NCBI GenBank assembly: GCA_945889195.1
Contig: CAMDBB010000003.1
Coordinates: 62,001-126,000, forward strand
Direction: 5' to 3'
Source: Bifidobacterium breve
GTDB lineage: Bacteria > Actinomycetota > Actinomycetes > Nanopelagicales > Nanopelagicaceae
Length of the DNA: 64,000 nt
This document shows, in pieces, positions 29,075 through 33,429 of this stretch. The first letter of the stretch is position 1; each line of letters opens with the position of its first letter. The position numbers and the translations under genes are program-made. Below the pieces are notes generated by a model. The model ran no database searches, was not told where the DNA came from, and saw only the letters and a list, made by a program, of their open reading frames with translations.

Positions 29075-30256
29075 ATGAAGACCCCTCCGCTAGTAACTCC
29101 AGGCCCTGCTCTATCTGTCGATGAAGTCCGTCGATATAGCCGCCATCTGATCATCCCTGATGTGGCGATGGCAGGACAACAGCGCATGATGAATGCAAAG
29201 GTGCTCTGCGTTGGTGCTGGTGGATTGGGCTCTCCTGCTCTTATGTATTTAGCAGCAGCAGGAATCGGCACACTTGGAATTGTTGAGTTCGATACTGTCG
29301 ATGAATCAAATTTGCAGCGCCAAATTATTCATGGCCAATCAGATATCGGAAAGAGCAAAGCCCTGAGTGCGAAAGAGAAGATTGCTGAAATCAATCCTTT
29401 TGTAAATGTTATTTTGCACGAGACCCGTCTTGATAACTCAAATGTGATGGAAATTTTTTCACAGTACGACATCATCGTTGACGGTACAGATAACTTTGCA
29501 ACACGCTACCTAGTTAACGATGCCTGCGTACTTCTTAAGAAGCCATATGTATGGGGTTCTATCTATCGCTTTGATGGTCAAGCTAGCGTCTTCTGGGCAG
29601 AGTACGGTCCTTGCTACCGCTGCTTGTATCCAGAACCACCACCTCCCGGAATGGTGCCAAGTTGCGCCGAAGGTGGAGTGCTCGGAGTTCTCTGTGCAAC
29701 CATCGGATCGATTCAAACAACAGAGGCGATTAAAGTCTTAACTGGCGTTGGTGAACCTCTCATTGGTTCGCTCATGGTCTACGACGCGCTTGATATGACA
29801 TTCCGTAAGATCAAAGTTCGTAAAGATCCTAACTGCCCATTGTGTAGCGAGAACCCGCGCCAGACTGCGCTCTTACCTGATTACGAAGCTTTCTGCGGTG
29901 TTCTCTCTGAGGCAGCCGCTGAAGCGAGCACTGGTTCAACAATCACAGTGCAGGAGCTGAAGACAAAGATTGATGCGCACGAAGATTATTACCTCATTGA
30001 TGTGCGCGAACCAAGTGAATTCGACATAGTTCGAATTCCAACCTCGCACCTGATTCCTAAGCAAGGCTTTATCGATGGCTCAGTCCTGGCAACTTTGCCG
30101 CAAGATAAGCCAATCATCTTGCACTGCAAGAGCGGTGTGAGATCAGCTGAGTGCTTGGCAATACTTAAGAGCGCAGGTTTTGCTGACGCATCACATGTAT
30201 CCGGTGGAGTAGTTGCCTGGGCTAAGCAGATTGATACATCTCTTCCGGTGTATTAA
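29075..30256 (+). CDS. moeZ: MoeB/ThiF adenylyltransferase with C-terminal rhodanese domain (MoeZ-like)
   Basis: [44 protein letters not shown]-terminal [11 protein letters not shown] rhodanese loop. Confidence 0.93.
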
Positions 30257-31122
30257 TGCGCGATAGTTATCAGGGCTTTCGCGTTCTCTTAGTGCATGCT
30301 CATCCTGATGATGAGACCATCAACAACGGTGCAACCATGGCTATGTATGCAGCTCTTGGCGCATCAGTAACTCTGGTTACCTGCACCCGCGGTGAAGAAG
30401 GCGAAGTACTTATCCCTGAGCTTGCTCATTTAGCTGCAAGTGCTACCGATTCTCTGGGCCAACATCGCATTACTGAGTTGGCGCTGGCGATGAAAGAGCT
30501 AGGAGTTACCGACCATCGCTTCCTTGGAGAAGGCGTAAAGCTCTATCGAGATAGCGGAATGATGGGAACCGAACCGAATAATCGACCAGATGTATTCTGG
30601 CAAGCAGATTTAGATGAAGCTGCAGATTTGCTTGTACGAGTCATTGATGAAGTCAAACCTCACGTTCTCATCACATATGACGAATTTGGTGGCTATGGCC
30701 ATCCAGACCACATTCAGGCTCATCGAGTTGCGATGCGGGCAGCCGAAAAGTCAGAGTGGGATATCCCAAAGATTTATTGGAATGTCATGCCCGTCTCGGT
30801 AATCCAAGAAGGCATTGATGCCATGAAAGGAATTGGCTCTGATTTCTGGGGGGCTGAAAAGGCTGAAGATCTTCCCTTTGCCAAAGATGATTCCTTTGTA
30901 CATGCGCTGGTAGATGGCAATGCCTATGTTGAAAAGAAGATGAACGCTATGAAGGCGCACTCCACGCAGATTGCAGTCGATGGACCATTCTTTGCGCTCT
31001 CTAATAACGTTGGGCTACAAGTGTGGGGTAATGAGTACTACACGTTGGTCAAGGGCGAGAAGAGCGCACCGCTCAATGAAAAGGGCTACGAGAGCGATCT
31101 CTTTGCAGGAATTTCGCTGTGA
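30256..31122 (+). CDS. mshB: MshB-like PIG-L deacetylase (mycothiol biosynthesis)
   Basis: [40 protein letters not shown]. Confidence 0.85.
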
Positions 31123-31431: not shown

Positions 31432-33024
31432 TTATCTCCAGCTCCAACTTTGTCCGGTTGGCCCATCGCTAATTTCTAGACCTGCCTCTTCTAACTGTGC
31501 ACGCAATTGATCACTAGCAGACCAGTTCTTATCAGCGCGAGCTTGCGCGCGTTGCGTAAGGAGAGATTCAATCTCTGGGGTCAGAGCCTTCTGTATCTCG
31601 ACTCTGGTTAGGTCTAGGCCCAAGACTTGATCTGCAAAGAGGAAGATGGCGCGCTTATCGAGTGCGCCAATAGCAGGATCTTTTTCAATAGCACGAAGGC
31701 GTTGCACCGCGCGTGGTGTATCAAGATCATTTGTTAGCGCATCAATGACCTCTTGATCAAATTTAAGATCGTCTGCAGAACCCCATTGCGCCATAGCTGT
31801 GCGCCAACGACGCAGAGTCGCATGTGCTGCCTCCAGAGATGCCCAACTTAAATCCATCTGTGACCGGTATCGGTTTTCCAGGAGCGAGAATCGAAGCGCA
31901 AGTGGATCAAGGCCGCGATCGATTACATCTTGCAGAAGAACGACGTTGCCTGCGCTCTTAGACATCTTCCGTCCTTCAAAGAGGAGATGTTCTCCATGGA
32001 CCCACATATCGACTGTCTCTTGCGCGGTTAGAGCATTTGATTGAGCGCGCTCATTTTCATGGTGAGGAAAGCGCAGATCGATTCCTCCTACATGCACATT
32101 CACGTGCGACTGTAAGAGATTGATGGACATCACGCTGCACTCGATATGCCAACCCGGAAATCCTGGACCCCAAGGGGAGTCCCAAATCATTTGCGTGCGC
32201 CCGCCGGCAACTTTCCAGAGCGCCCAATCTGCGTGAAACTTCTTTCCACCTTCATCGGTGTATTCATAGCGATGGCCTGGTTTGAGCGAATCTAATTTAT
32301 TTCCACTTATTGCTCCGTAGCTCGCGCACGATGCTGCATCAAAGTAGACAGAGCCATCACTACCAACATAGGCGCTCTTGTTGGCGATGAGCTCTTCGAT
32401 TGCCACAATCATCTCGGGCATATTTTCAGAAGCTTTTGGATAGAAATCTGCAGGAATAACATTGAGCCTTGCTAAATCTTGGTGGAACCTATCTTCGTAT
32501 CGCCGCGCAATTTCAAAGGGATCAGTATTTGTGCGCTTTGATTCAGCCAACATCTTGTCGCCTTCAGCGCCGTCTTCCTGAAAATCATCGGCCATGTGCC
32601 CTACATCGGTAATGTTCTGAATCAACTGGACGTCCAGCCCGGTCAGAACAATGGTGCGCGCAATCAGATCGGCAAGAAGAAAGGTTCGTAGATTGCCAAC
32701 ATGTGCATCGCGATAGACGGTAGGTCCGCAGCAATACATCGTGACTAATCCATCTATCTGAGTAATCTCCTTCACGGAGCGGCTCATGGTGTCGTAGATG
32801 GATAAACTCCCATGCGAGATATCGCGGCGATTAAAGACTGGAATAACCCGCATGACGGCAATATCGTCTGGGTTGAATGTGATCAATTCACCGCGACGAT
32901 TGAGTAGCTCTGTCTCACTCTGTAAAACTCCGACAATATCCCGGAAGCCTCCATCGCTATCTCGCAGGCGCAAGGTGGCTCGTTTACCAAGGGCCTCGGC
33001 CACCTCGCCACGAAAGTCGTTCAC
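31432..33024 (-). CDS. Cysteinyl-tRNA synthetase-like protein with N-terminal SH3-like extension
   Basis: CCGPTVYRDAHVGN (HIGH), GWHIECS, FPHHENERAQS, GRKMSKSAGN (KMSKS); residues 1-72 extra relative to E. coli CysRS; GTG start preceded by TAGTGT-N6. Confidence 0.88.
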   Translation of the reverse strand: MNDFRGEVAEALGKRATLRLRDSDGGFRDIVGVLQSETELLNRRGELITFNPDDIAVMRVIPVFNRRDISHGSLSIYDTMSRSVKEITQIDGLVTMYCCGPTVYRDAHVGNLRTFLLADLIARTIVLTGLDVQLIQNITDVGHMADDFQEDGAEGDKMLAESKRTNTDPFEIARRYEDRFHQDLARLNVIPADFYPKASENMPEMIVAIEELIANKSAYVGSDGSVYFDAASCASYGAISGNKLDSLKPGHRYEYTDEGGKKFHADWALWKVAGGRTQMIWDSPWGPGFPGWHIECSVMSINLLQSHVNVHVGGIDLRFPHHENERAQSNALTAQETVDMWVHGEHLLFEGRKMSKSAGNVVLLQDVIDRGLDPLALRFSLLENRYRSQMDLSWASLEAAHATLRRWRTAMAQWGSADDLKFDQEVIDALTNDLDTPRAVQRLRAIEKDPAIGALDKRAIFLFADQVLGLDLTRVEIQKALTPEIESLLTQRAQARADKNWSASDQLRAQLEEAGLEISDGPTGQSWSWR

Positions 33025-33108
33025 GTGATAACACTAATCGTGCAATGCCCGCCCTGCAGGGTTAGAATTACCGCCATCTGTTAAGGAAAGCCAACTGGAG
33101 GATTCTTC

Positions 33109-33429
33109 GTGACATATGTGATTGCCGAACCATGCGTTGATGTGAAAGATAAGTCCTGCCGTGAAGAATGTCCGGTGGATTGCATCTACGACGGCGCTCG
33201 AATGCTCTATATCCAGCCTGATGAATGCGTCGATTGCGGAGCCTGCGAACCGGTCTGCCCAGTGGAAGCGATCTATTACGAAGATGATGTCCCTGGCCAG
33301 TGGCAGAACTACAAGAAGATTAATACTGAGTTTTTCATTGAGCTCGGTTCACCTGGAGGAGCATCAAAGGTCGGGGAGACAAATACCGATCATGCAGATG
33401 TAACGGTTCTTGCGCCAAAAACTTCCTGA
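33109..33429 (+). CDS. fdxA: 7Fe ferredoxin
   Basis: MTYVIAEPCVDVKDKSCREECPVDCIY...CVDCGACEPVCPVEAIYYEDDVP; SD GGAGG. Confidence 0.96.
   Translation: MTYVIAEPCVDVKDKSCREECPVDCIYDGARMLYIQPDECVDCGACEPVCPVEAIYYEDDVPGQWQNYKKINTEFFIELGSPGGASKVGETNTDHADVTVLAPKTS

What the first reader, a model, noticed from the sequence alone, without database searches (positions are those of the whole stretch)
31432..33024. Cysteinyl-tRNA synthetase-like enzyme fused to an N-terminal SH3-like domain, at the fdxA-dapC locus
Residues about 73-530 match CysRS from N- to C-terminus (HIGH-type HVGN, zinc ligands, KMSKS, C-terminal DGPTGQSW). Residues 1-70 (GKRATLRLRDSDGGFRDIVGVLQSETELLNRRGELITFNPDDIAVMRVIPV) are absent from E. 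coli CysRS. They resemble the small N-terminal domain that precedes GNAT acetyltransferases (Rv0428c-like) which, from memory, sit next to fdxA in other actinobacteria. This looks like a domain swap in which the GNAT half was replaced by CysRS. The NITDVGHMADD motif also departs from the canonical NITDIDDKI. Mycothiol chemistry (mshB nearby; MshC is a CysRS paralogue) gives a possible functional context.
Basis: partly seen in the sequence, partly recalled or inferred. Interest (0 to 1): 0.66.

Follow-up and report, generated by a model that had tools for sequence, protein, structure and literature searches.

The report
Repeated SH3-barrel fusion to second CysRS
In small freshwater actinobacteria a spare cysteine-tRNA-charging enzyme has been fused at least four separate times to a tiny barrel-shaped domain left behind when its neighbour gene, an acetyltransferase, was lost; the tiny domain persists even where both neighbours are gone, so it probably has an unknown job of its own.

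Summary
Window 31432-33024(-) encodes a 530-aa CysRS-like protein with a real, selected N-terminal small beta-barrel of the SH3_Rv0428c family. The "domain swap with the fdxA-linked GNAT" idea is largely right but can be sharpened. The ancestral locus in this order (Nanopelagicales; the genus includes Ca. Planktophila) is fdxA <- -> [SH3-GNAT][CysRS2], two separate adjacent genes. The GNAT half was lost repeatedly. The SH3 part survives as a free 60-80-aa gene, as a fusion to CysRS2 (four independent events; one origin rejected, AU p=6e-41), or alone after CysRS2 was lost as well. It is under purifying selection (dN/dS about 0.05-0.3). SH3 is found in 101/108 good genomes of the order; the seven without appear to be one genus. 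Across the wider class it still sits beside fdxA. CysRS2 is a complete second CysRS of the widespread "NITDxGH" clade, beside a canonical CysRS and MshC; the NITDVGH motif is normal for its clade. Mycothiol ligation is not supported. Best reading: a second cysteinyl-tRNA synthetase carrying an autonomous barrel module. What the module binds is unknown; RNA binding is a guess from fold.

The parts
31432..33024 (-). fused gene SH3-CysRS2 (CYSL), 530 aa, GTG start
   Evidence: orthologous fusions
32836..33024 (-). N-terminal small beta-barrel (SH3_Rv0428c-type), residues 1-63: helix 4-10 plus five strands
   Evidence: PF24551 E=0.0037; order-wide profile; AF2 pLDDT 93.3, pTM 0.78; dN/dS 0.05-0.22
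32806..32841 (-). linker, residues 62-73 (PVFNRRDISHGS region); low pLDDT at 65-68; VFNRRD mostly shared by both fused subclades of the genus
31441..32805 (-). CysRS core, residues 74-528
   Evidence: TIGR00435 379 bits; top fold matches are CysRS-tRNACys 1u0b and other CysRS/MshC
32692..32703 (-). HIGH-type signature HVGN, residues 108-111
   Evidence: H108, G110, N111 invariant in 64-row alignment
31954..31968 (-). KMSKS, residues 353-357 (KMSKS in 52, KMAKS in 12 of 64 rows)
31444..31587 (-). CysS_C anticodon-binding domain, residues 480-527
   Evidence: PF23493 43.4 bits, cut-off 23
33109..33429 (+). fdxA (ferredoxin), divergent neighbour; conserved partner of the SH3 gene across the class
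33025..33108 (.). 84-bp divergent intergenic region; GATTA-GTTAT sequence just upstream of the start has counterparts in many relatives
   Evidence: promoter role inferred
30256..31122 (+). mshB/LmbE-like deacetylase, neighbour (context only; used for an independent tree)

Best explanation
The gene encodes a second, complete cysteinyl-tRNA synthetase (CysRS2) of the NITDxGH clade carrying an autonomous small beta-barrel (SH3/Sm-like) at its N-terminus. Shown by sequence: in relatives the barrel is the N-terminal domain of a GNAT gene transcribed away from fdxA and directly upstream of CysRS2; the GNAT part was lost, leaving the barrel as a free gene or joined in frame to CysRS2, and fusion occurred in four lineages. 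Inferred: CysRS2 charges the single tRNA-Cys(GCA) alongside the housekeeping CysRS. Also inferred: the barrel has its own selected function (possibly RNA or partner binding) and is kept next to or fused with CysRS2 so that both are made together; it may help CysRS2 bind tRNA.
For: Five locus states across about 180 loci: SH3-GNAT+CYSL, SH3-only+CYSL, fused, SH3-only without CYSL, CYSL without SH3, plus SH3-GNAT without CYSL. The fusion label needs four changes on the CYSL tree, all forced by well-supported branches; a single origin is rejected, AU p=5.6e-41. Linkers differ by lineage. The mshB tree nests the SH3-only/no-CYSL loci within SH3-only+CYSL loci. dN/dS mostly 0.05-0.27 for free and fused barrels. 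SH3 in 255/296 genomes, 101/108 high-quality, almost always one copy; CYSL in 245/296. CysRS hallmarks and anticodon domain intact. One tRNA-Cys among 44 tRNAs. All single-contig genomes tested have canonical CysRS besides CYSL.
Against: No activity data. CysRS2 is dispensable: some near-complete relatives have lost it and live with the canonical CysRS only. The barrel is kept without CysRS2, so it is not simply a CysRS2 subunit; one genus keeps CysRS2 without the barrel. The barrel is not strongly basic (mean net charge 0 to +1.7) and has no significant fold match (best E 0.025), so RNA binding is only a guess.
Confidence: 0.62

Rival explanations
1. The barrel is functionally unrelated to CysRS2. 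It is a free-standing fdxA-locus protein, and fusion is a by-product of genome streamlining (adjacent or overlapping genes joined by small deletions or indels) that mainly couples expression.
For: Barrel retained without CYSL and without GNAT; conserved neighbour across the class is fdxA (15 of 16 class-level loci shown); genes already overlap by a few bases in the free state; flexible low-confidence linker.
Against: Four independent fusions, always to CYSL; SH3-only genes directly before CYSL also in other families of the class (L037, L039, L342, L343). Fusion only to the immediate downstream gene is, however, what chance joining would also give.
Confidence: 0.3
2. CysRS2 does not charge tRNA but donates cysteine to a small molecule, like MshC, in a thiol pathway at the mshB locus.
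For: mshB is two genes away; MshC is a CysRS paralogue; a GNAT (MshD is also a GNAT) was the ancestral neighbour.
Against: Separate mshC present; MshC model 243.7 against cut-off 485; anticodon-binding domain kept and conserved, whereas MshC lacks it (general knowledge); the tree places it in the NITDxGH CysRS clade, apart from MshC.
Confidence: 0.05
3. CysRS2 mainly makes cysteine persulfide (CPERS activity of CysRS, PMC5660078).
For: CysRS can have this activity; sulfur-related neighbours moeZ and mshB.
Against: The KIIK lysine pair needed in E. coli is only half present: DKML-type, one lysine (motif role from PMC5660078).
Confidence: 0.03

Closest known systems
NITDxGH-type bacterial CysRS (TIGR00435 members; solved example 6ujd, Elizabethkingia)
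   Same: Catalytic core, zinc-ligand positions, HxGN, KMSKS, C-terminal anticodon domain, NITDxGH motif; nearest kin are Chloroflexi/Dormibacterota and deep actinobacterial enzymes
   Different: Has an N-terminal SH3-type barrel; is a second CysRS in the complete genomes tested, beside a canonical one
SH3_Rv0428c-GNAT proteins (PF24551 + PF24553; CG3035 N-acetylglutamate synthase family)
   Same: N-terminal barrel and position at fdxA
   Different: GNAT domain absent in the window genome; barrel joined to CysRS
MshC
   Same: CysRS-derived catalytic fold
   Different: MshC lacks the anticodon domain, scores apart and is a different gene in the same genome
CysRS* of Desulfobacterales (reviewed in PMC9437257)
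   Same: A second CysRS beside the normal one
   Different: CysRS* lacks the anticodon domain and pairs with SelC*; here the anticodon domain is kept, only one tRNA-Cys was found and no SelC-type tRNA among the tRNAs read

Membership tests
Cysteinyl-tRNA synthetase | TIGR00435 cysS equivalog score over cut-off | tested here: met
   379.2 against 340
Cysteinyl-tRNA synthetase | HIGH and KMSKS signatures, zinc ligands (two Cys, His, Glu) | tested here: met
   H108/G110/N111, C99, C296, H321/H322, E323/E325, K353/M354/K356/S357 invariant in relatives
Cysteinyl-tRNA synthetase | C-terminal anticodon-binding domain | tested here: met
   PF23493 43.4 bits, cut-off 23; best fold match 1u0b, CysRS with tRNACys
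Cysteinyl-tRNA synthetase | Aminoacylates tRNA-Cys | not testable with these tools
   needs an assay
SH3_Rv0428c domain (PF24551) | Curated score cut-off for the window protein itself | tested here: not met
   17.7 bits against 27, using residues 1-70
SH3_Rv0428c domain (PF24551) | Clear homology to SH3 domains of family members | tested here: met
   45-56% identity to the N-terminus of SH3-GNAT neighbours; profile E 2e-26; L037 homologue 42.7 bits, over the cut-off. Assigned through intermediates, not by the curated score
MshC | TIGR03447 cut-off; no anticodon domain | tested here: not met
   243.7 against 485.1; anticodon domain present
CG3035 N-acetylglutamate synthase | GNAT domain | tested here: not met
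   Absent from the window gene; no SH3-GNAT elsewhere in the genome
CysRS-type persulfide synthase (CPERS) | KIIK and KMSK lysine motifs | tested here: not met
   KMSK present, KIIK reduced to one lysine

The most novel reading that the evidence does not exclude
The SH3_Rv0428c barrel is an autonomous, previously unrecognised small protein of Actinomycetes genetically tied to fdxA, and GNAT and CysRS2 are exchangeable partners that it delivers to a shared target such as tRNA, the ribosome or the ferredoxin. CysRS2 is then a specialised, condition-dependent supplier of Cys-tRNA.
Probability: 0.25. Interest if true: 0.72.

Novelty: new variant of a known kind. Interest (0 to 1): 0.52.

Why it matters
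Very small genomes rarely keep two full CysRS genes (general expectation), and here one of them has gained the same extra domain four times. The natural series of states (with GNAT, free barrel, fused, barrel alone, no barrel) is a ready-made experiment for asking what this barrel does. The barrel is annotated so far only as the N-terminus of an acetyltransferase, yet stand-alone copies exist in several actinobacterial families, and those tested in this order are under purifying selection, so it may be an overlooked conserved protein.

Tried and rejected
MshC-like function: scored and rejected. Aberrant NITD motif: rejected, it is clade-typical. Mis-called start: rejected by conservation and dN/dS. 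Single fusion event inherited everywhere: rejected (AU p=5.6e-41). The two fused subclades of the window genus looked separate in FastTree; they are not split by supported branches under the mixture model (four changes in total), group together in the mshB tree (support 92) and mostly share the VFNRRD linker, so I count one event there. A barrel that is a dedicated CysRS2 subunit: weakened by loci with the barrel but no CYSL. A second tRNA-Cys as reason for CysRS2: none found (the first pattern search found no tRNA and was uninformative). Sequence search of the barrel against PDB gave nothing significant. The Python copy of the whole genome was not available. Literature searches gave no earlier description of this fusion or of a second CysRS in these bacteria; the library lacks many subscription papers.

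Full report
Observation. The 530-aa ORF at 31432-33024(-) is real. Its residues 74-528 are a full CysRS: TIGR00435 379 bits over a cut-off of 340, tRNA-synt_1e and the CysS_C anticodon-binding domain. The AlphaFold2 model (mean pLDDT 88) has as best solved match the CysRS-tRNACys complex 1u0b. Residues 1-63 are a separate domain: PF24551 SH3_Rv0428c, weak with the curated model (E=0.0037, below its cut-off) but 2e-26 with a profile built from this protein and relatives. It is modelled with high confidence as a short helix plus five strands (pLDDT 93.3).

The genome. It is a 1.43-Mb assembly (97.6% complete). It has three CysRS-type genes: the housekeeping cysS with ispDF-like and rlmB-like neighbours (L001), mshC (L003) and the window gene. 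It has 44 tRNA matches and one tRNA-Cys(GCA).

Where the domain comes from. In relatives the same locus holds two genes: an SH3-GNAT (about 315-340 aa, Rv0428c_C family, related to the CG3035 N-acetylglutamate synthase family but below that model's cut-off) and, overlapping or abutting its end, a CysRS of about 455 aa orthologous to the window's residues 74-530. No SH3-GNAT remains in the window genome.

Locus states. Classifying all fetched loci (some are the same genome fetched twice) gave 59 SH3-GNAT+CYSL, 56 SH3-only+CYSL, 45 fused, 14 CYSL without SH3 and 8 SH3-only without CYSL. The SH3-only genes in the order are mostly 60-81 aa and typically overlap or abut the CYSL start. In eight genomes of the same genus both GNAT and CYSL are gone and only a 66-72-aa SH3 gene remains between fdxA and the next gene. 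Some genomes of a sister genus have SH3-GNAT and no CYSL. Over the order, SH3 was found in 255 of 296 genomes (101 of 108 of high quality) and CYSL in 245 (93 of 108). By my reading of the lists, the seven high-quality genomes without SH3 are all from one genus (g31), which keeps CYSL.

Number of fusions. On a CYSL-only tree under a mixture model the fused state needs four changes, all forced by supported branches: the window genus, and genera coded g34, g36 and g27. Holding all fused rows as one clade is rejected with p=5.6e-41; g1+g34 p=0.002, g34+g27 p=0.018. Linkers differ: VIPVFNRRD in the window genus, a KVVPS...GIFLYDT type in g34, other and mostly longer ones in g36 and g27. In g34 and g27 the nearest relatives have the free SH3 gene, in the window genus and g36 the full SH3-GNAT, which suggests two routes (joining of a free mini-gene; direct deletion of GNAT). 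The routes are inference. An mshB tree independently groups the 25 fused window-genus loci (support 92) and nests the SH3-only/no-CYSL loci among SH3-only+CYSL loci, so CYSL was probably lost there while SH3 stayed.

Selection. Pairwise dN/dS is 0.05-0.22 for the barrel in the fused clade, 0.07-0.27 for the lone SH3 gene, and 0.05-0.22 for SH3-only next to CYSL (simple NG86 estimates, several pairs near saturation). The barrel is therefore a selected protein in each of these states. Two positions (D29, G32) are invariant and G13, R15, R19, R28, L34, G45, F50 nearly so.

Wider class. SH3 is found in 107 of 148 sampled genomes of the class. In 15 of 16 inspected class-level loci fdxA is the neighbour, divergent, and family f17 (genomes of 3.6-10.7 Mb) mostly has stand-alone SH3 genes of about 76-135 aa open frame. 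CYSL occurs in 7 of the 23 other families of the class sampled.

What CysRS2 is. In a 108-row tree CYSL sits in the NITDxGH CysRS group, next to deep actinobacterial, Chloroflexi and Dormibacterota enzymes and far from the canonical actinobacterial CysRS and MshC. That fits an old acquisition or retention of a different CysRS lineage; direction of transfer is not shown. All single-contig genomes tested carry canonical CysRS besides CYSL, so it is a second enzyme.

Mechanism. I commit to: CysRS2 charges tRNA-Cys, and the barrel is an autonomous module co-expressed with it. Fold neighbours of the barrel include Hfq/LSm, RimP and the GatD barrel (1.8 A over 58 columns), but no match is significant (best E 0.025) and the domain is not strongly basic, so RNA binding is a weak inference. 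The rival that the barrel has nothing to do with CysRS2 and is simply joined by streamlining is serious, because the barrel survives without CysRS2.

Verdict. A new architectural variant of a known enzyme, with good evidence for recurrent fusion and for an overlooked small conserved protein at the fdxA locus; function unproven.

Noticed in passing
L332, L334-L336, L339-L341, L347 (class-level genomes, family f17): Stand-alone SH3_Rv0428c genes of roughly 76-135 aa open frame sit divergent to fdxA in genomes of 3.6-10.7 Mb without a GNAT domain attached.
   Followed up: partly
window 33025-33060 and upstream of SH3 starts in L034, L045, L073, L184, L241-L249: A recurrent sequence like GGTTTATCGTTG or GATTA-GTTAT lies a few bases before the start codon; it could be a -10 element of a leaderless transcript.
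   Followed up: partly
L080-L082, L084, L086, L092, L095, L116, L120 (Chloroflexi, Dormibacterota and similar): NITDVGHMRQE-type CysRS ORFs of about 660-820 aa, some 200-350 aa longer than usual, suggest a C-terminal extension or fusion.
   Followed up: no
G257 (about 98% complete draft, close relative of the window genome): No canonical CysRS hit, only the fused CysRS2 and MshC; may be an assembly gap or a genome living on CysRS2.
   Followed up: no
G000:C4:76658-76731 (L294): tRNA-like gene with an odd four-base anticodon call (gacg) by ARAGORN.
   Followed up: no
L057, L059, L061, L072: MAG records titled Bifidobacterium breve carry this freshwater-actinobacterial locus; the labels look wrong.
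   Followed up: no
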